A stretch of 35,324 nt of DNA from an uncultured Bacteroidota bacterium (GTDB lineage Bacteria; Bacteroidota; Bacteroidia; Flavobacteriales; Flavobacteriaceae): positions 1 through 35,324 of the forward strand of contig CACLAD010000013.1 in NCBI GenBank assembly GCA_902604715.1, read 5' to 3'. The notes beneath the pieces were generated by a model. That model saw nothing but the letters and a program-made list of their open reading frames with translations. It ran no database searches and was not told the origin of the DNA. Positions 1 through 12,944 of the stretch are shown here, in pieces. Within the stretch, counting starts at the first letter, position 1. Each line of letters begins with the position of its first letter. A program made the position numbers and the translations under genes.

Positions 1-870
1 GATATTGATTAATTGATTGTCATGAACATTAATTTGGGCTCTTAAATTATCTAAATCTTCTAAGAAAACTTCATCATTATTCGTAATCCTTCTTACTTTT
101 AAGTTTTTAGTCAATTCTTTTAAGTTTTCAGGCGTTATTTGCTGTTTAGCGTCACTCCATGCATTATCTGGATCATTATGTGATTCAATCATCAATCCAT
201 CATAATTTAAGTCTAGTGCAGTTTGACATAAATCAAAAATAAGATCTCTTCTCCCTGCTATGTGAGAGGGGTCCAGAATCAATGGCAAATCAGGAAGTCT
301 TCTTTGAAGATCAATAGCAATTTGCCACTCTGGATTATTTCTATATTTTGTTTTTTCATATGTTGAAAATCCTCTATGTATTGCTCCAATATTTTTAATA
401 TTTGAAGAAAAAAATCTTTCAATTGCTCCTAACCATAAGGATAAATCAGGGTTTACAGGGTTTTTAATTAGAACAATTTTTTCAGTACCTCGAAGTGCTT
501 CCGCGATTTCTTGAACAATAAACGGGCTTACAGTTGTCCTGGCTCCAATCCACAAAATATCAATTTCATTTTTAAGTGCTAAGTCAACATGGTTAGCATT
601 AGCAACCTCAGTAGTAGTAAGAATTCCTGTCTCTTTTTTTACTTTTTTCATCCACTGTAATGCTAAGGATCCAATACCTTCAAAATTTCCAGGTCTTGTT
701 CTTGGCTTCCAAATACCTGCTCTATAAACTATTGTATCTGAATCTTTAAGCTGATGGGCAATATCTAAAACTTGATTCTCAGTTTCGGCACTACACGGTC
801 CTGCAATTAAAAGTGGGTGTGAAAGATTCATATCATCCAACCATTTTCTCAAATTTTTACTATTCTTCAT
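1..870 (-). CDS. Bifunctional DAHP synthase (type I-beta) / chorismate mutase, partial (C-terminus beyond window start)
   Basis: My translation of the minus strand from the ATG at 868-870 stays open to base 1, giving 290 codons without a stop. The N-terminal domain is a KDO8P-synthase-like DAHP synthase, which condenses phosphoenolpyruvate and erythrose 4-phosphate in the first shikimate step. Visible motifs are LIAGPCSAE (residues 21-29), YRAGIWKPRTRPG, GART and the metal-binding DPSHIAGRRD. The last visible residues, LRAQINVHDNQLINI, match the first helix of an AroQ-type chorismate mutase, so the gene is the DAHP synthase with C-terminal mutase known from Bacteroidota; roughly 70 residues are missing. 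It starts 3 bases after the tyrA stop, as the last visible gene of the pheA operon. The mutase would supply prephenate to the upstream PheA and TyrA, neither of which carries its own mutase domain. Confidence 0.93.
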   Translation of the reverse strand, partial: MKNSKNLRKWLDDMNLSHPLLIAGPCSAETENQVLDIAHQLKDSDTIVYRAGIWKPRTRPGNFEGIGSLALQWMKKVKKETGILTTTEVANANHVDLALKNEIDILWIGARTTVSPFIVQEIAEALRGTEKIVLIKNPVNPDLSLWLGAIERFFSSNIKNIGAIHRGFSTYEKTKYRNNPEWQIAIDLQRRLPDLPLILDPSHIAGRRDLIFDLCQTALDLNYDGLMIESHNDPDNAWSDAKQQITPENLKELTKNLKVRRITNNDEVFLEDLDNLRAQINVHDNQLINI

Positions 871-873
871 ATT

Positions 874-1728
874 CTAATTTATTCCTTTTAAAATTGTTTT
901 TATATGATTAGTTGACTTTAATTGAGATTCAACTTCATCAAATCTATCTTTTTTAATCAAAGAATTTATATATACTAAATTTTCAATGTAATCATCTAAT
1001 GATTTAATAATATTTTTTTTATTATCCTCAAAAATATCTGTCCACATTTCAGGTGAACTTTTTGCTAATCTAACTGTTGATTCAAAACCACTCCCTGCCA
1101 TATCAAAAATATTCTTTTCATTTTTTTCTTCATCCATCACGGTTTTACCTAACATGAAAGAACTTATATGGGATAAATGTGAAACGTAAGCAATATGCTT
1201 ATCATGAGAATCAGAGTCCATGTAGCCAATTTTCATTTTCATTAAATTAAATATTTTTAGTCCGAGCTCAAGTTTTGATTTATCTGTTTTATGCTTATCA
1301 CATATAATTATATTTTTTCCTTCGAATAAGCCTTCATGAGCAGCCGCGGGTCCTGAGAATTCTGTTCCAGCGATTGGGTGAGTAGCTAGAAAATTTTGAC
1401 GATTAGGATGGTCTTTTACAATTTGGCAAATACTTTTTTTTGTGGAACCAAAATCAATAACTAAGCTGTTATTATTCACAGATTTTAAAACAGTAGGTAG
1501 AATATTTATTATAGATTTAACAGGAACAGAGACTATAATAATATCAGGGTTATTTATTTGACAAAGTGTAGATTTTTCATCAATAATCTCTAACTCAAGT
1601 GCTTTCTCAAGGTGAATTTCTGACTTATCTACTCCAATAATTATTGATTTAGGAAATAATTTTTTTATTTCAATTGCAAAGCTACTGCCGATAAGACCAA
1701 CACCAATAACATAAATTTTCTTTTTCAT
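874..1728 (-). CDS. tyrA: Prephenate dehydrogenase
   Basis: This 284-residue protein converts prephenate to 4-hydroxyphenylpyruvate with reduction of NAD(P), on the tyrosine branch. The N-terminus is a Rossmann fold with GVGLIGSS (residues 9-16). HPIAGTEFSG near residue 117 is the conserved prephenate-binding segment, followed by a helical dimerisation domain with HLSHISS. No ACT or chorismate mutase domain is present; mutase activity is supplied by the fused domain of the next gene. The ATG start overlaps the aminotransferase stop by four bases (ATGA), suggesting translational coupling. I cannot tell NAD from NADP preference by eye. Confidence 0.93.
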   Translation of the reverse strand: MKKKIYVIGVGLIGSSFAIEIKKLFPKSIIIGVDKSEIHLEKALELEIIDEKSTLCQINNPDIIIVSVPVKSIINILPTVLKSVNNNSLVIDFGSTKKSICQIVKDHPNRQNFLATHPIAGTEFSGPAAAHEGLFEGKNIIICDKHKTDKSKLELGLKIFNLMKMKIGYMDSDSHDKHIAYVSHLSHISSFMLGKTVMDEEKNEKNIFDMAGSGFESTVRLAKSSPEMWTDIFEDNKKNIIKSLDDYIENLVYINSLIKKDRFDEVESQLKSTNHIKTILKGIN

Positions 1729-2867
1729 AATCTTGAAATTGCTTTTTTAATATTGGTTTCTGAATTGCATAGTGAAATCCTTACATACCCTTCACCATTT
1801 GATCCAAAAATACTACCAGGCGCAATAAAAATACCTTTTTCATTTAAAAGACTATCCACAAAATCAATAGAGATTTTATTACTTTTAATCTTAGCCCAAA
1901 CAAACATTCCCGATGAAGATTTTGAAAAATCACAATTTAATTTATCGGCTAATTCCCATACTAATTTTCTTCTTTTTGAATATTCAAAATTTAAATTTTT
2001 AAACCAATCCTTTGATTGACTTAATGCTGAGACAGCACCCATTTGTAAAGGAAAAAACATGCCTGAATCAACATTACTTTTTACCTTTAAAATATTTGAA
2101 ATGTATTCAGGATTTGCCACAGCAAACCCTAATCTCCATCCAGCCATATTAAAACTTTTACTCAGAGAATTTAACTCAATACAAATATCTCTCGCTCCGT
2201 TAACATTCATAATACTTAATGGATTATCATTTAAAATGAAACTATATGGATTATCATTTACTATTAAAATATTATTAGACTTCGCAAAATTTATAATTTC
2301 AGAAAAATACTCATGGGGTGCTACTGCTCCTGTTGGCATATGGGGGTAATTAATCCACATTATCTTAACAGTTGATAAATCAATTTTAGTTAATTGCTCC
2401 AGGTCAGGTAACCAGTTATTTTTTTCATTTAAATCATAATATATAATTTCATTTCCAATCAACTTTGTTATTGATGAATATGTTGGATATCCTGGATTTG
2501 GTATTAAGACTTTATCATTTTCAGAAAGAAAAGACATTGAAATATGAAAAATTCCCTCCTTACTTCCAATCAATGGTAAAATTTCAGATTGATAATTTAA
2601 ATCGCAATTATAATGTAACTTATAAAAATTTGATATTTCCTTTCTAAATTTTTCAACTCCGATATAGCTTTGGTATTTATGCGCTCCAGCAACATTTAAC
2701 GAATCTTTTAATTTTTTTATTACCGGAGTTGGAGGAGATAAATCTGGGCTCCCAATTCCAAGGTTGATAATATCTTCTCCAGAGTCAATTAAAGACTTTA
2801 CCTCTCTCAGCTTGGAGGAAAAATAATACTCACTTAGTCCTTCTATTCTTTTTGAAAATTCAATCAT
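1725..2867 (-). CDS. PLP-dependent aminotransferase, class I/II (probably aromatic amino acid)
   Basis: Read from ATG at 2865-2867, the product is 380 residues of the fold-type I aminotransferase family. INLGIGSPDLSPP near the N-terminus, NPGYPTY, the NDNPY segment that binds the cofactor, and SLSKSFNMAGWRLG with the PLP lysine are all visible. Its place between pheA and tyrA suggests it transaminates phenylpyruvate and 4-hydroxyphenylpyruvate, the last step to Phe and Tyr; this is inference from context, since the same family includes aspartate and LL-diaminopimelate aminotransferases. I prefer the start at 2867 over the in-frame ATG at 2888 because homologues begin near the M-I-E motif and the overlap with pheA shrinks to 8 bases. 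Confidence 0.88.
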   Translation of the reverse strand: MIEFSKRIEGLSEYYFSSKLREVKSLIDSGEDIINLGIGSPDLSPPTPVIKKLKDSLNVAGAHKYQSYIGVEKFRKEISNFYKLHYNCDLNYQSEILPLIGSKEGIFHISMSFLSENDKVLIPNPGYPTYSSITKLIGNEIIYYDLNEKNNWLPDLEQLTKIDLSTVKIMWINYPHMPTGAVAPHEYFSEIINFAKSNNILIVNDNPYSFILNDNPLSIMNVNGARDICIELNSLSKSFNMAGWRLGFAVANPEYISNILKVKSNVDSGMFFPLQMGAVSALSQSKDWFKNLNFEYSKRRKLVWELADKLNCDFSKSSSGMFVWAKIKSNKISIDFVDSLLNEKGIFIAPGSIFGSNGEGYVRISLCNSETNIKKAISRL

Positions 2868-3687
2868 CTTTAGAGTTTTTGTATTCACCTAATACTTTAA
2901 AATCTTTAGCCATAATTTCAATTATAGATTTAGCCTTAAAATAATCTTCTAATTTATCAAAAGTGATATCAACAAAAAATGAGTATCTCCACGGAGTTTG
3001 AATCATAGGTATCGATTGAATCTTAGTTAAATTTAACTTACAATCACTTAAAACATTTAAAATAGCTGCCAAGCTTCCCCTTTTATGATCCAATTCAAAT
3101 TTTACTGATGCCTTATTAAAATTTAAGTTTTTAGATGAATCTTTTTTTTGAAGAATAACAAATCTTGTTTGATTCTTTTTTATCGTTTGAATATTAGCAT
3201 TTATAATATCCAGCCCATAAATTTTTGAGGCTAAATCACTTGCAATTGCACCTAAACCCTTTATTTTATTTTCAGAAATTTTCTTTGCTACCTGAGCTGT
3301 ATCCTTATCCTCAATTAAAACAATATCCGCATTATCTTTAAAAAAATCTCTGCATTGAAGAAGAGCCATGGGATGGGACTGAACTTCTTTTATATCTTCA
3401 ATTGATTGACCTTTTAAGGCAATCAAATTATGTGATATTTGAAGATAAAATTCACCTACAATATTTACTCCATATTCATCAATCAATGCATAATTAGGAA
3501 TAATAGATCCAGCAGTAGAATTTTCTATTGCCATGATAGCATAATCTATTTTATCATTAAATAAATTTAAAATCAATTCTTCAAAGGAAAGATATTCAAT
3601 CAAATTAATATTTTCTTCAAAATAGTTGTTTGCAACTATGTGATGAAATGAACCCTTTATTCCCTGTATACCTATATTTTTTTTCAT
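2860..3687 (-). CDS. pheA: Prephenate dehydratase
   Basis: The protein (275 residues from ATG at 3685-3687) decarboxylates and dehydrates prephenate to phenylpyruvate. The catalytic domain carries IENSTAGS, SHPMALLQC and the NQTRFVI segment with the catalytic Thr-Arg-Phe triad. It is followed by an ACT domain from about residue 195 with RGSLAAIL and TKIQSIP. The second ACT motif differs from the ESRP that forms the Phe pocket in better-studied enzymes. There is no chorismate mutase domain. I reject the longer reading from 3717, because it would translate through the terminator palindrome at 3697-3714; the start at 3687 follows the terminator T-run directly. It is the first gene of the four-gene Phe/Tyr operon and is probably controlled by the upstream leader and attenuator. 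Confidence 0.94.
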   Translation of the reverse strand: MKKNIGIQGIKGSFHHIVANNYFEENINLIEYLSFEELILNLFNDKIDYAIMAIENSTAGSIIPNYALIDEYGVNIVGEFYLQISHNLIALKGQSIEDIKEVQSHPMALLQCRDFFKDNADIVLIEDKDTAQVAKKISENKIKGLGAIASDLASKIYGLDIINANIQTIKKNQTRFVILQKKDSSKNLNFNKASVKFELDHKRGSLAAILNVLSDCKLNLTKIQSIPMIQTPWRYSFFVDITFDKLEDYFKAKSIIEIMAKDFKVLGEYKNSKDD

Positions 3688-3714
3688 AAAAAAAAAGTCT
3701 CGAAATTTCGAGAC
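3688..3714 (-). terminator. Intrinsic terminator acting as probable pheA attenuator
   Basis: On the minus strand a perfect 18-base palindrome, GTCTCGAAATTTCGAGAC (3697-3714), is followed at once by nine T residues (3688-3696) and then by the pheA ATG at 3687. A strong hairpin with a T-run directly against a start codon leaves no room for a downstream promoter, so pheA can only be expressed by readthrough. Together with the Phe/Tyr-rich leader peptide just upstream, this is the terminator of an attenuation switch. The alternative, that it simply ends the upstream dehydrogenase transcript, does not explain the leader or the abutting start. Confidence 0.85.
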
Positions 3715-3733
3715 CATAAATAATTTTGATTAG

Positions 3734-3783
3734 TTATATTACAACTGCCTCTACATCCTTTTTAGATAAAAGAAGTAATATAA
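3734..3783 (-). promoter_or_regulatory. Candidate 1:2 pairing of the pheA attenuator
   Basis: A perfect 9-base inverted repeat pairs TTATATTAC (3775-3783, the Leu-Tyr-Tyr codons of the leader) with GTAATATAA (3734-3742, just after the leader stop). A ribosome paused on the Tyr/Phe codons would cover the first arm and free the second, as in classical attenuators. A possible antiterminator is GAGGC at 3747-3751 (overlapping the leader stop) with GTCTC at 3710-3714, the 5' arm of the terminator; it is only five pairs including one G-U. The repeat is seen; the switching order is inference. Confidence 0.5.
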
Positions 3784-3810
3784 GTTAAAGTTGTAGTTAA
3801 AAAATAGCAT
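3751..3810 (-). CDS. Phe/Tyr-rich leader peptide of the pheA operon
   Basis: A 19-codon reading frame runs from ATG at 3808-3810 to TAG at 3751-3753 and encodes MLFFNYNFNLYYFFYLKRM. Five Phe and four Tyr in 19 residues, with YYFFY as a run of five aromatic codons near the 3' end, is far above expectation for a random frame. It lies 37 bases upstream of a perfect-palindrome terminator and directly before pheA, so it is most likely a regulatory leader whose translation senses charged tRNA-Phe and tRNA-Tyr. It has no Shine-Dalgarno but an A-rich run before the ATG, as usual in Bacteroidota. It is too short for routine gene callers. Confidence 0.82.
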   Translation of the reverse strand: MLFFNYNFNLYYFFYLKRM

Positions 3811-3848
3811 TTTTAAATATTGATTGGTCTAATGTAAATAATATTTAT

Positions 3849-3880
3849 TAAAAAAAAGAAAATTATCTAAAGAATATAAT
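3849..3880 (-). terminator. Weak possible terminator after the glyceraldehyde-3-phosphate dehydrogenase gene
   Basis: On the minus strand ATTAT (3876-3880) and ATAAT (3862-3866) could form a five-pair, A/T-only stem across the stop codon, followed by a T-rich run with one C (3850-3861). The stem is weak, so termination here is uncertain; the T-run is the stronger part of the signal. Confidence 0.3.
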
Positions 3881-5459
3881 CTGTAGATACAAAGTTAGAA
3901 TTATCAGAACTTAACAAATCCTTAATTATCTTATTGTTTTCATTATTATCCTTTGAGGCAACAAAAGTACGAATTGAAAATGATCTTAGTGCATCATGAA
4001 CACTTAATGTACTAAATGCAGAATCTTTTCTTCCTGTAAATGGATAAATATCGGGGCCTCGTTGACATGAGCTATTTATGTTGACCCTACAAACTAAATT
4101 CACTAAGGTATCAATTAGGGGTCCTAGCTTCTTTGTTTCCTTTCCAAAAATACTAACCTGTTGTCCATAATTTGATTCTGCCATATCATCAAGAGGTTCA
4201 TTAATATCTTTAAATGAAATTATCGGAATCACTGGTCCAAACTGCTCTTCTTTATAAACACTCATATCTTTAGTAACAGGGTATAAAATAGCTGGAAATA
4301 CATAATTTTCACATTGAATTCCACCTTTTGGATTAACTATCTTAGCGCCCTTCTGTTTTGCATCAGTAATTAGTGATTGAATGTATTCGGGTTTATTCGG
4401 TTCTGGAAGCGGTGTTAGCTTAACGTTGTCCTCCCAAGGATTTCCGTATTTTAGTTCATCAACAGCCTTGGAAAATCTGTTTAGAAATTCATCTCTAATT
4501 TCATCATGGACATAAATTATTTTGAGAGCGGTACATCTTTGTCCGTTGTATGAAAGGGATCCACTTATACATTCCTGAATCGTTAAGCCTAGGTCAGCAT
4601 CTGGTAATATAATCGCTGGGTTTTTTGCCTCAAGACCCAAGACTAATCTTAGTCTATTTTTCTTTGGATGAGATTCTTGCAACGAATTAGCAGATGAACT
4701 GTGTCCTATTAGTGCCAAGACATTTACTTTACCAGATTCCATAATAGGACTTGCTAAAACCCTACCTCTTCCAAACAAAATATTTACTACACCTGGTGGA
4801 AAATGTTTTTTGAAAGCTTCCATTAACGGAGATATTAATAGTACACCGTGTTTGGCTGGCTTAAATATCACTGTATTACCCATAATTAAAGCTGGAATTA
4901 AAAGACAAAATGTCTCATTCAACGGGTAATTATATGGTCCTAAGCAAAGAACTACACCAAGTGGTCCCCTACGAATGTGTGCATTAATACCACTATGTTT
5001 TTGAAATTTTGCAGAATCTCTATCAATTTTCTTGTAAGCTTCAATTGTATCGTATATATAATCTACGGTTCTGTCAAATTCTTTTTGAGAATCAGTATGG
5101 TTTTTTCCAATCTCCCACATTAATAACTTTACAACTATATCTCTTTTCTGCTTCATTTCTTCAACGAAGCTTTCCATTGCATTAATGCGATCAACAACCT
5201 TCATCGTTGGCCATAAACCCTTACCTTTATCAAATGCATTACAAGCAGAGTCTAGCGCCTTAATAGCTTCATCTTTACCCAAACTTGGTATTTCACCAAG
5301 CAAAGTAGGCTTATATTCAGGCGTTGATGAGATTGTAGAATAAACAGATGAAAATTCACCATCCCATTTAACCAAATTTCCATTGATTAGATAGTTATCT
5401 TGCTTTATCTTTTCAGTTATCTCAAACTCTTGCGGTATCTTCTTAAATTTAAATTCCAT
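3867..5459 (-). CDS. gapN: NADP-dependent glyceraldehyde-3-phosphate dehydrogenase (ALDH superfamily)
   Basis: This aldehyde dehydrogenase superfamily protein (530 residues from ATG at 5457-5459) probably oxidises glyceraldehyde 3-phosphate directly to 3-phosphoglycerate, giving NADPH and bypassing ATP formation in glycolysis. Visible active-site features are [10 protein letters not shown] with Asn177, LGLEAKN with the general base Glu277, and NGQRCTALK with the nucleophile Cys309. The whole chain resembles the roughly 530-residue NADP-GAPDH of Flavobacteriaceae, including the N-terminal [10 protein letters not shown] segment. In-frame ATGs at 5489 and 5507 add a tail that homologues lack, so I chose 5459. 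The gene is monocistronic by spacing and divergent from the GT90 gene. A different aldehyde substrate cannot be excluded by eye. Confidence 0.85.
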
Positions 5460-5507
5460 AATAACTAATTTAGCTGCAGCAATTTCCATTCCAAAAAAAT
5501 AAATCAC

Positions 5508-11212: not shown

Positions 11213-12895
11213 TTAATTAAATTCATCTGTTACACATCCTAAAGAAGCTGAAGAAACCACATTTGCATACTTAAATAGTGATCCTTTGGTAACTTTTAAA
11301 GGTTGTTTTTTCCATTTTTTTCTTCTTCTAATTAATTCATCGTCTGACAAATGTAAAGTAATAATATTTTTTTCAGCATCAATTGAAATTTTATCCCCGT
11401 CCTTAACAATTGCAATATTTCCTCCAACCTGTGCTTCTGGAGTTATATGACCTACAACAAATCCGTGGGTGCCACCTGAAAATCTACCGTCTGTGATTAA
11501 TGCAACATCTTTTCCTAAACCGGCACCCATTATCCCCGCTGTTGGTTTCAACATTTCAGGCATCCCTGGACCACCTTTTGGCCCAACATACCTGATAACA
11601 ACTACATCACCTTTTTTAACTTTACCATTTTTTATACTATGATTTGCTTCTTCCTCTGAATCAAAAACATTTGCAGTTCCACTAAAATGAAGCCCTTCCT
11701 TTCCGGTTATTTTAGCAACACTCCCTTTACTAGCTAAATTTCCATATAATATTCTGATGTGACCACTATTTTTAATCGGACTCTCACAAGGTCTAATTAT
11801 ATCTTGTTGAAAAGTAAGTTCTTCAACTTCATCAAGATTTTCGCTTAAAGTATTTCCTGTTACTGTTAAACAATCACCATGTAAATAGCCTTTTTTCAAG
11901 AGATACTTTAGGACTACAGGAATACCTCCTATATCATGTAAATCTTCCATCAGAAACTTACCACTTGGCTTTAAGTCAGCTATGAATGGAGTTTTCTCGC
12001 TAATTCTTTGAAAATCATCAATTGTAAAATCAATATCAGCAGCTCTAGCTATTGCCAGAAAATGTAAAACAGCATTAGTAGAACCTCCGAGAGCAACTAC
12101 TGTTGTTACTGCATTTTCAATAGATTTTTTATTTATGATGTCTAATGGTTTTAAATCATCTTCAATTAATTTTTTCATTGCCTTTCCGGTCTCACTGGAT
12201 ATAGAATTTCTCATTTTATTATTTGCAGGAATTGAAGAAGAAAATGGCAATGACATACCTAATGCTTCAATTGCAGAGGCCATTGTATTTGCAGTATACA
12301 TTCCTCCACAAGCTCCAGATCCAGGGCAAGATTTTTTTATAATTTCTCTATACTCTTTATTATCAATTGTTCCAGTAACCTTTTCTCCCCATGCTTCGAA
12401 TGCCGAAACAATATCTAATTTTTTATTTTTGTGGCAACCTGAATCAATTGTTCCACCATATAAAAGAATTGACGGTCGATTCAGCCTAATCATTCCCATT
12501 AAAGCACCCGGCATATTCTTATCACAACCAACAACTGTGATCAAACCGTCATAGCTCATGGCTTGTACAACGGTTTCAATAGAATCCGCGATAATATCTC
12601 TAGACGGTAAAGAGTATCTCATTCCTGGGGTTCCCATTGAAATTCCATCACTTACTCCTATTGTATTGAAAATTAATCCTACAAAATCAATAGAATTCAC
12701 CCCATCTTTCACATCAAGGGCTAAATTATTTAAATGCATGTTACAAGGGTTGCCTTCGTATCCAGTACTTGCTATTCCGATTAAAGGCTTATTAAAATCT
12801 TCATCTGTGAATCCAATAGCATATAGCATCGCCTGAGCTGCAGGCTGTGAATTATCCTGAGTTACTACCCTACTATATTTATTTAATTTTTTCAT
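11213..12895 (-). CDS. ilvD: Dihydroxyacid dehydratase
   Basis: This 560-residue iron-sulfur enzyme dehydrates the dihydroxy acids to the 2-oxo acids of Ile and Val. Cluster cysteines are visible in VGCDKNMPG and [17 protein letters not shown], and the C-terminal part has [19 protein letters not shown]. It is the first gene of the ilvD-B-N-C-A block. The ATG at 12893-12895 follows a terminator-like hairpin by only a few bases, so how it is transcribed is unclear. Confidence 0.96.
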
Positions 12896-12898
12896 TTA

Positions 12899-12944
12899 TA
12901 AAAAAAGAAAATTATCTATGAAAATAAATTCACACAGATAATTT
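12899..12944 (-). terminator. Terminator-like hairpin between the outer-membrane barrel gene and ilvD
   Basis: On the minus strand AAATTATCTGTG... pairs with CATAGATAATTT (arms 12933-12944 and 12909-12920; 12 pairs with one G-U, 12-base loop), followed by TTCTTTTTTT. The T-run ends about four bases before the ilvD ATG. It may end the upstream operon, or serve as a conditional terminator for ilv, since no space is left for a promoter downstream. Confidence 0.65.

What the first reader, a model, noticed from the sequence alone, without database searches (positions are those of the whole stretch)
3688..3810. Phe/Tyr leader peptide and attenuator before pheA
Seen: a 19-codon frame with five Phe and four Tyr codons, including a YYFFY run, followed by a perfect 9-base inverted repeat between the Tyr codons and the post-stop region, then an 18-base palindrome plus nine T residues ending exactly at the pheA ATG. 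Known: this architecture is ribosome-mediated attenuation as in proteobacterial pheA and trp leaders. Inference: the operon is read through only when Phe/Tyr-tRNA is scarce. I do not recall this leader being described in Bacteroidota, but cannot search.
Basis: partly seen in the sequence, partly recalled or inferred. Interest (0 to 1): 0.8.

Follow-up and report, generated by a model that had tools for sequence, protein, structure and literature searches.

The report
Phe/Tyr leader-peptide attenuator before pheA
A flavobacterium appears to switch on its phenylalanine and tyrosine genes only when a ribosome stalls on a tiny Phe/Tyr-rich reading frame just upstream, a classic control device that is widespread among its relatives but hardly documented there.

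Summary
On the minus strand, 3810-3751 encodes MLFFNYNFNLYYFFYLKRM (5 Phe, 4 Tyr). A 9-base inverted repeat, an 18-base palindrome and T9 follow, ending at the pheA ATG (3687). Ribosome-mediated transcription attenuation is strongly supported by comparison. An aromatic leader plus terminator precedes pheA in 17 of 17 genus loci, 103 of 105 family loci and 20 of 23 class loci. The antiterminator is not the 9-base repeat but a short strand about 11 nt after the last aromatic codon, a copy of the terminator 3' arm. It covaries with the terminator 5' arm (363 of 420 standard pairs; maximum of 1000 shuffles 345). In the window it is GAGGC, overlapping the stop codon, and is not significant on its own. 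Sister leaders match their operons: His before hisG (12 of 12), Trp before trpE (22 of 24). A 2021 Flavobacterium psychrophilum paper already reported clues for leader-peptide attenuation and a conserved 5' element at pheA, so this is a well-documented new member of a known kind. No expression data were available.

The parts
3829..3836 (-). Predicted promoter -7 element TACATTAG (like the Bacteroidota TAnnTTTG, recalled)
   Evidence: TAnnTT[TA]G within 45 nt upstream of the leader in 156 of 215 distinct elements, shuffled mean 13.5
3858..3862 (-). Doubtful -33 candidate TTTTC
   Evidence: In relatives TTG/TTTG-type words peak at -22/-21 from the -7 element; the window's candidate lies at -26, off that peak
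3751..3810 (-). Leader peptide ORF MLFFNYNFNLYYFFYLKRM, 19 codons plus TAG
   Evidence: counterparts in 17 of 17 genus loci
3766..3780 (-). Regulatory codon run Tyr-Tyr-Phe-Phe-Tyr
   Evidence: frame test
3789..3795 (-). Strand 1, 5' side of the predicted protector helix (UACAACU), inside the leader ORF
   Evidence: naked-RNA fold, pairs with 3740-3746; not universal in relatives
3740..3746 (-). 3' side of the predicted protector helix (AGUUGUA)
3775..3783 (-). Left half of the 9-base inverted repeat TTATATTAC
   Evidence: not exactly conserved (L005)
3734..3742 (-). Right half of the 9-base inverted repeat GTAATATAA
3747..3751 (-). Strand 2 (antiterminator 5' strand) GAGGC, overlapping the stop codon; begins 14 nt after the last Tyr codon
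   Evidence: 8.5% of shuffles of the window's own region reach this score; supported by covariation of the homologous columns
3708..3715 (-). Strand 3: terminator 5' arm GGTCTCGA; GUCUC (3710-3714) pairs with strand 2 or strand 4
3696..3703 (-). Strand 4: terminator 3' arm TCGAGACT
3688..3696 (-). T9 tract of the intrinsic terminator, ending at the pheA start codon
2860..3687 (-). pheA, prephenate dehydratase
   Evidence: NCBIfam PRK11898 E 2.6e-55, below that model's curated cut-off
1725..2861 (-). aminotransferase of the LL-DAP/aspartate aminotransferase class
   Evidence: PRK09276 E 4.5e-121, below cut-off
874..1728 (-). tyrA, prephenate dehydrogenase
   Evidence: NCBIfam PRK08507 356.1 bits, over cut-off 295
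1..870 (-). DAHP synthase, cut by the contig end
   Evidence: NCBIfam PRK08673 E 5.4e-55 and TIGR01361 E 5.9e-53, below their cut-offs

Best explanation
A ribosome-mediated transcription attenuator that senses charged tRNA-Phe and tRNA-Tyr and controls the pheA-aminotransferase-tyrA-DAHP synthase operon. Transcription starts shortly upstream of the leader ATG (inferred from a conserved promoter motif). A ribosome starts on the leader without a Shine-Dalgarno sequence. If Phe- and Tyr-tRNA are plentiful it reaches the stop codon, covers strand 2 (GAGGC), and the nascent RNA forms the 3:4 terminator before pheA. If either tRNA is scarce the ribosome stalls in the YYFFY run; its leading edge ends before strand 2, which captures strand 3 (GUCUC) before strand 4 is made, so the terminator fails and the operon is transcribed. 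If the leader is not translated at all, a protector hairpin made from the leader codons sequesters strand 2 and termination is the default in this lineage. Shown: conserved frame, terminator, frame-specific codons, covarying 2:3 pairing, geometry, matching His and Trp leaders. Inferred: translation, stalling, kinetic competition, the physiological response.
For: Conservation: leader plus terminator in 17 of 17 genus, 103 of 105 family (2 genomes counted twice), 10 of 14 order and 20 of 23 class loci; opposite-strand control 0, 2, 0 and 0; block-shuffled none. A covariance model finds a match at E 0.01 or better in 98 of 120 family genomes; of 74 hits below E 1e-4 in genomes whose pheA position I had, 73 lie 1-516 nt upstream of pheA on the same strand (some of these are model members). 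Antiterminator: in 197 of 215 distinct elements at most 5% of shuffles reach the match of strand 2 to its own terminator arm; it starts a median 11 nt after the last aromatic codon. In 71 diverse sequences 363 of 420 cells are standard 2:3 pairs, shuffled mean 332, maximum of 1000 shuffles 345, slid 93-208; two-sided changes 45 against a mean of 18.7. Window fold: P(2:3) 0.00 naked, 0.99 stalled, 0.00 with the ribosome at the stop. Coding: both F and Y in 214 of 215; frame 0 specific. Operon-matched leaders: His 12 of 12 hisG loci, Trp 22 of 24 trpE loci; cross-hits 0 and 3 of 215 at pheA, 0 of 12 at hisG, 2 and 0 of 24 at trpE.
Against: No RNA, ribosome or growth data for this organism. With all RNA present the terminator wins even with a stalled ribosome (window P(3:4) 0.97; full fold -13.6 kcal/mol, against -6.0 for the antiterminator fold of the shorter transcript), so the model needs co-transcriptional trapping. 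The window's own 2:3 helix is 5 bp with one G-U, and 8.5% of shuffles of its region reach its score, so alone it is not significant. Without the position limit, 113 of 153 elements pass the 5% level, not 197 of 215. Counting G-U, the 50 sequences outside the GTCTCG class pair with the consensus arm as well (255 of 294) as with their own (245 of 294); Watson-Crick only, their own is better (219 against 182). The protector is not universal: naked P(2:3) averages 0.63 over 212 elements and is 0.91 or more in 3 of 15 genus elements. Some relatives with pheA show no device (L142, L133, L127, L128, L112-L114), and 19 of 23 phylum-level loci are negative. Weaker model hits (1e-4 to 0.01) lie mostly away from pheA.
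Confidence: 0.92

Rival explanations
1. The hairpin is just the terminator of the upstream aldehyde dehydrogenase gene (3867-5507) or a stray terminator, and the Phe/Tyr frame is a by-product of AT-rich DNA.
For: 12 of 414 short ATG frames in the window are about as aromatic by a loose measure; the upstream gene is on the same strand and ends 56 nt before the leader.
Against: Conserved next to pheA in most class loci examined, frame-specific codons, a promoter motif between the upstream gene and the leader, and a third strand that covaries with the terminator.
Confidence: 0.02
2. Translational rather than transcriptional control: the hairpin and T tract abut the pheA start codon, so stalling opens the start site instead of preventing termination.
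For: In the window T9 ends exactly at ATG, so the hairpin lies within the initiation region.
Against: In relatives the element ends 1-516 nt before the pheA match (median 25, n 73), with repeat arrays between them in L029 and L216, and the T tract is kept (the detector requires it). It may add to, not replace, termination in this lineage.
Confidence: 0.05
3. A U-rich RNA motif or riboswitch-like element bound by a protein or ligand, with coding only apparent.
For: The leader is U-rich; several elements keep the RNA after the peptide is truncated (L050, L058, L060, L070).
Against: Aromatic codons are in one frame (7.12 against 1.95 and 2.53 per 9), synonymous codons mix (TTT 771, TTC 343, TAT 611, TAC 168), and the same layout carries His or Trp codons at hisG and trpE. 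No Rfam family at gathering score in the window. The truncations keep the aromatic run and lose only the part after it.
Confidence: 0.02
4. A regulatory nascent peptide that arrests the ribosome by its sequence, sensing something other than tRNA charging.
For: Part of the peptide is well conserved inside the family (YYNWFYFFFSKRNETLYV type).
Against: The peptide sequence differs widely between genera while aromatic content is kept; the C-terminal conservation overlaps strand 2, and 16 of 215 frames stop before strand 2.
Confidence: 0.02

Closest known systems
Proteobacterial pheA/pheL attenuator (Rfam RF01859 Phe_leader)
   Same: Phe-rich leader ORF, alternative 2:3 and 3:4 pairing, terminator before pheA (architecture of pheL recalled, not fetched).
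   Different: No RF01859 match at gathering score in the window. With E up to 5 in five loci (L001, L019, L030, L083, L094) only L094 matches, 33.9 bits against a gathering score of 55. Here Tyr and often Trp codons are included, Shine-Dalgarno-like words are absent, and the operon covers the Tyr branch and DAHP synthase.
5' element upstream of pheA in Flavobacterium psychrophilum and other Flavobacteriaceae (PMC9723704; passages and section 19 read)
   Same: Same gene and, it seems, same family; the paper states strong clues for leader-peptide attenuation upstream of amino-acid operons and structured elements at pheA and hisG shared with other genera, without Rfam hits.
   Different: The text read does not say which operons have leader peptides, nor give the leader sequence, pairing strands, covariation or reach beyond the family; its supplements were not available. 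F. psychrophilum itself was not among the loci examined here.
trp and his leader attenuators
   Same: Same four-strand logic (recalled); leaders with WWW and HHHH runs precede trpE and hisG in relatives.
   Different: Different amino acids and strands; their antiterminators were not analysed here.
Tandem attenuators of the Salmonella mgtCBR leader (PMC3641672, abstract read)
   Same: Two short ORFs in series controlling one operon, as in L140, L155, L158 and L159.
   Different: There the two sense different signals (ATP and proline); here all units carry Phe/Tyr codons.

Membership tests
Ribosome-mediated (leader-peptide) transcription attenuator | Short ORF rich in codons for the amino acid(s) made by the operon | tested here: met
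   9 of 19 codons Phe/Tyr; conserved and frame-specific
Ribosome-mediated (leader-peptide) transcription attenuator | Intrinsic terminator between the leader and the first gene | tested here: met
   3:4 pairs 641 of 710, shuffled maximum 577 (rows were selected for a hairpin, so part of this is by construction)
Ribosome-mediated (leader-peptide) transcription attenuator | Mutually exclusive antiterminator using the terminator 5' arm | tested here: met
   for the group; window GAGGC:GUCUC, P 0.99 when stalled, not significant on its own
Ribosome-mediated (leader-peptide) transcription attenuator | Geometry: stalled ribosome leaves strand 2 free, ribosome at the stop covers it | tested here: met
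   median 11 nt from the last aromatic codon, n 212; masked folding with an assumed 10-nt leading edge
Ribosome-mediated (leader-peptide) transcription attenuator | Protector 1:2 hairpin that restores termination without translation | tested here: inconclusive
   predicted in 12 of 15 distinct genus elements, the window included; not general in the wider set
Ribosome-mediated (leader-peptide) transcription attenuator | Promoter upstream of the leader | tested here: inconclusive
   motif in 156 of 215; no start site measured
Ribosome-mediated (leader-peptide) transcription attenuator | Leader is translated and read-through rises on Phe/Tyr starvation | not testable with these tools
   needs Ribo-seq, reporters, starvation
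Rfam RF01859 Phe_leader | Covariance-model score at or above the gathering score of 55 bits | tested here: not met
   none in the window; of five loci tested with E up to 5 only L094 matches, 33.9 bits
T-box or other Rfam riboswitch | Rfam match at gathering score | tested here: not met
   0 matches in the window

The most novel reading that the evidence does not exclude
Ribosome-mediated attenuation is a general, ancestral mode of amino-acid operon control in the class of this organism (Bacteroidia, name recalled): Phe/Tyr/Trp at pheA, His at hisG, Trp at trpE, working without Shine-Dalgarno sequences. Because it needs a ribosome close behind RNA polymerase, it implies tight transcription-translation coupling in a phylum where, as far as I recall, this is little studied. 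Some lineages stack two or three such units in series, so that read-through requires repeated stalling and the response becomes steeper.
Probability: 0.6. Interest if true: 0.65.

Novelty: new member of a known kind. Interest (0 to 1): 0.5.

Why it matters
A 2010 survey stated that, to its authors' knowledge and leaving aside the ermC leader, leader-peptide systems had been shown only in Proteobacteria and Actinobacteria before they added Firmicutes (PMC2965389, passages read). The comparative evidence here puts an attenuator with a covarying antiterminator across many families of the Flavobacteriaceae class, in a phylum whose mRNAs naturally lack Shine-Dalgarno sequences (PMC6847099, start of the abstract in the listing). 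That makes two things testable: how a ribosome loads promptly on an SD-less leader, and whether ribosome and polymerase are coupled in this phylum. It also gives annotators a ready signature for unannotated leaders at pheA, hisG and trpE.

Tried and rejected
The 9-base inverted repeat as the antiterminator: rejected, because it does not touch the terminator 5' arm and is imperfect in L005.

Swap tests were weak. A median of 20% of other sequences' arms score as well as the own arm, because about half the elements share GTCTCG. Against the consensus arm, counting G-U, the 50 rows outside that class pair as well (255 of 294) as with their own arm (245 of 294); with Watson-Crick pairs only their own arm is better (219 against 182). 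The first, position-free shuffle test gave 113 of 153 at the 5% level; limiting strand 2 to 3-20 nt after the last aromatic codon gave 197 of 215. The column-permutation and slide tests on all 71 rows are clear, but shuffles ignore relatedness.

The tool's own alignment A2 puts strand 2 a base out in some rows, so pairs were counted on a slower MAFFT alignment made in the box, and the count of structure pairs was not used. The 71 rows are those of the 215 elements that differ by more than a set amount and are not over 150 nt.

Missing cases: L029, L112, L127, L130, L133, L142 and L216 were printed and read by eye. L029 and L216 do carry the device, displaced by repeat arrays: the covariance model finds it for L029's genome at G033:C21:149102-149235, and L216 shows a terminator arm at the edge of the stretch. 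L130 has leader, strand 2 and a long-loop terminator missed by the detector. L112 looks as if pheA runs straight on from coding sequence (no gene call made); L113 and L114 were not inspected. L127, L133 and L142 appear to lack it; L128 was seen only as a detector miss.

Covariance model: 89 of 120 family genomes have a hit below E 1e-4 and 9 more only a weaker one. Of 90 places below 1e-4, 73 are at pheA, 1 (G107:C240) is not at the listed pheA, and for 16 I had no pheA position. A second place in G177 has E 1.0e-4 and is not at pheA. Of the 36 places from 1e-4 to 0.01 I can place 3 (G175, G045, G153) next to pheA; E-values are rough. G053 has a hit (1.2e-5) but no pheA match.

His and Trp: 12 of the 14 hisG places were examined (two partial hits of G076 left out) and 24 of the 30 fetched Anth_synt_I_N loci (six weak hits left out); L280 and L295 fail the Trp detector, L280 having a WWW frame without a found terminator.

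Literature: ten searches. In their listings and the passages I read, only PMC9723704 describes Bacteroidota amino-acid leader attenuation; PMC7366714 mentions leader-like short ORFs, and PMC8305728, on his genes in the superphylum, mentions attenuation once and no leader (passages). The library lacks most subscription journals; Lopatovskaya et al. 2010, cited in PMC4833913, could not be read and may cover the phylum. Supplementary tables were not available.

Sampling caveats: family loci are best-scoring hits plus ones I chose from the tables, not a random draw; G183 and G189 entered twice; the 80 named-record loci overlap the unnamed ones. The 215 distinct elements were chosen by the detector, so their 215 of 215 leader rate, and part of the 3:4 pairing, is by construction.

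Full report
What is there. The feature lies on the minus strand. A 19-codon frame, MLFFNYNFNLYYFFYLKRM, runs from 3810 to its TAG at 3753-3751. It has 5 Phe and 4 Tyr codons, with a Tyr-Tyr-Phe-Phe-Tyr run at 3780-3766. The 9-base inverted repeat (3783-3775 and 3742-3734), the 18-base palindrome (3714-3697) and T9 (3696-3688) are as described, and pheA starts at 3687. The downstream genes match prephenate dehydratase, an aminotransferase, prephenate dehydrogenase and a DAHP synthase cut by the contig end (only the prephenate dehydrogenase is over its model's curated cut-off).

Where it comes from. Two loci of the same genus, L015 and L016, have the contig lengths and coordinates of the records NZUH01000027.1 (Flavobacteriaceae bacterium NAT90) and NTKO01000001.1 (Bacteroidetes bacterium MED-G13), so the family is very probably Flavobacteriaceae.

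Is it more than chance? The leader RNA folds better than all 200 dinucleotide shuffles (z -3.16). Aromatic richness alone would not be enough in this AT-rich DNA: 12 of 414 short ATG frames have at least 5 of 9 aromatic codons and 2 have 6. The decisive evidence is comparative.

Conservation. pheA was found in 72 of 100 relatives, 226 of 249 family genomes and 172 of 198 phylum genomes. I examined the upstream DNA of 262 loci; 80 of these are named records, mostly titled Flavobacteriaceae, that overlap the others. A detector required 5 aromatics in 9 codons and an intrinsic terminator within 150 nt. It is positive in 17 of 17 genus loci, 103 of 105 family loci, 79 of 80 named-record loci, 10 of 14 other loci of the order, 20 of 23 of the class and 4 of 23 of the phylum. 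The opposite strand gives 0, 2, 0, 0, 0 and 0, and block-shuffled sequence none. Two of the misses, L029 and L216, carry the device displaced upstream by repeat arrays, and a third, L130, has a terminator with a loop too long for the detector. A covariance model built from 28 family sequences hits 98 of 120 family genomes at E 0.01 or better, 89 of them below 1e-4. Of 74 hits below 1e-4 in genomes whose pheA position I had, 73 lie 1-516 nt upstream of pheA; for 16 further hits I had no position. Weaker hits lie mostly elsewhere. The window's own hit, a model member, is 82.5 bits.

The coding signal. In 215 distinct elements the aromatic core has 7.12 aromatic codons of 9 in frame, against 1.95 and 2.53 in the other frames, with mixed synonymous codons; the core window was chosen for frame 0, which favours that frame. 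Both Phe and Tyr occur in 214 of 215, and Trp in 107. In relatives, hisG is preceded by His-rich leaders with terminators in 12 of 12 loci examined, and trpE by Trp-rich ones in 22 of 24. Cross-hits are few: His leaders at pheA 0 of 215 and Trp leaders 3 of 215; aromatic leaders at hisG 0 of 12 and at trpE 2 of 24. The leader therefore matches what the operon makes.

The antiterminator. A short strand that copies the terminator 3' arm follows the aromatic codons by a median of 11 nt (n 212; range 4-18). In 197 of 215 elements at most 5% of shuffles reach its match to its own terminator 5' arm; without the position limit it was 113 of 153, and for the window 8.5% of shuffles reach it. It takes many forms: CGAGAC with GTCTCG, CGGGACT with AGTCCCG, AGGATT with AATCCT, GAGCGGTC with GACCGCTC, GAGAACTTC with GGAGTTCTC. 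In an alignment of 71 diverse sequences made from sequence alone, 363 of 420 cells form standard pairs. The shuffled mean is 332 and the maximum of 1000 shuffles is 345; slid versions give 93 to 208. Two-sided changes number 45 against a shuffled mean of 18.7 and maximum of 30. The terminator pairs give 641 of 710, shuffled maximum 577, partly by construction since rows were selected for a hairpin. Shuffles ignore relatedness, so they are not strict probabilities. In the window strand 2 is GAGGC (3751-3747), overlapping the stop codon, and pairs with GUCUC (3714-3710).

Geometry and folding. A ribosome with the last aromatic codon in its A site would end about 10 nt downstream (footprint recalled), just before strand 2. 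With that mask the window RNA gives P(2:3) 0.99 before strand 4 is made. Naked RNA gives 0.00, because the protector hairpin holds strand 2. With the ribosome at the stop codon, strand 2 is covered by the mask and P(2:3) is 0.00, while the terminator is 0.95. Over 212 elements the means are 0.63 naked, 0.90 stalled at the last aromatic codon, 0.98 stalled three codons earlier and 0.00 at the stop. Against the model: when all RNA is present the terminator wins even in the stalled state (window P 0.97), so the switch must be kinetic; and the protector is not general (3 of 15 distinct genus elements lack it).

Start signals. A TAnnTT[TA]G motif lies within 45 nt upstream of the leader in 156 of 215 elements (13.5 expected), with a TTG/TTTG-type element peaking at -22/-21 from it. 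Shine-Dalgarno-like words occur in 2 of 215 (5.5 expected). In the window the -7 element is TACATTAG (3836-3829) and no good -33 element is seen, so a transcript would begin between the upstream gene and the leader.

Mechanism. The best reading is ribosome-mediated transcription attenuation on Phe and Tyr supply, as set out in the best explanation. Presence, conservation, codon matching and covariation are shown; translation, stalling and regulation are inferred. In this lineage the T tract touches the pheA start codon, so the hairpin may also lower initiation; relatives have spacers, so that is unlikely to be the main mechanism.

What is known. PMC9723704 (F. psychrophilum; passages and section 19 read) reports strong clues for leader-peptide attenuation upstream of amino-acid operons, and structured 5' elements at pheA and hisG shared with other Flavobacteriaceae genera, without Rfam hits. 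PMC7366714 (passages read) mentions short ORFs reminiscent of leader peptides in Bacteroides thetaiotaomicron. PMC2965389 (passages read) knew no system outside Proteobacteria and Actinobacteria, ermC aside, before adding Firmicutes. PMC4833913 (passages read) treats leader genes broadly; in the passages seen Bacteroidetes are named for a spacing peak. So the kind is known and a hint for this family is in print; I did not find the strand-level anatomy, the covariation, the class-wide reach or the tandem copies in the ten searches made. The window's RNA is not a member of Rfam Phe_leader by score, though it works like one.

Verdict. Interest is moderate: a textbook device in a phylum where it is barely documented, and one that makes transcription-translation coupling without Shine-Dalgarno sequences testable.

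Noticed in passing
L278, L279, L281, L283, L284, L286, L289, L290, L292, L306 (window's genus) and other trpE loci: Trp leader peptides such as MKKLQLNMWWWKHEIFIS with a terminator precede trpE; 22 of 24 trpE loci examined are positive. The window's own assembly shows no trpE match (80.1% complete).
   Followed up: partly
L264-L275 upstream of hisG: His-rich leaders (such as MNLIQTHHHHHTGSQTSQG) with terminators in 12 of 12 hisG loci of relatives examined.
   Followed up: partly
L140 (-512, -341, -204), L158 (-385, -230), L159 (-374, -247), L155 (-423, -270), relative to the end of each stretch: Two or three aromatic leader-terminator units in series before pheA. A script that also asks for a strand-2 match finds at least two units in 3 of 262 loci (L140, L155, L158); a third unit in L140 and a first one in L159 were read by eye.
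   Followed up: partly
L029 (G033) and L216 (Gelidibacter): Arrays of repeats with GGCGGGAT hairpins between the attenuator and pheA; in G033 the element ends 516 nt before pheA.
   Followed up: partly
L050, L058, L060, L070: The leader stop codon has moved to just after the aromatic run while strand 2 and the terminator are kept, suggesting that the C-terminal peptide part is conserved as RNA, not as protein.
   Followed up: partly
window 12909-12944 (-): AT-rich hairpin AAATTATCT...AGATAATTT followed by a T-rich tract just before the frame starting at 12895 (ilvD by my reading, not checked with a tool), without an obvious branched-chain leader ORF.
   Followed up: no
genus g1 genomes G000-G020: hisG not found in any of 21 genomes of the window's genus (all incomplete), which may mean histidine auxotrophy, while pheA is found in 17 of 21.
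   Followed up: no
L127, L128 (G095, G086; genomes of 0.6 Mb): Genomes of about 0.6 Mb in the same order keep pheA but the detector finds no aromatic leader (L127 read by eye).
   Followed up: no
G083:C25:19052-19609: pheA match interrupted by an in-frame TAG in the genome that carries three stacked leaders.
   Followed up: no
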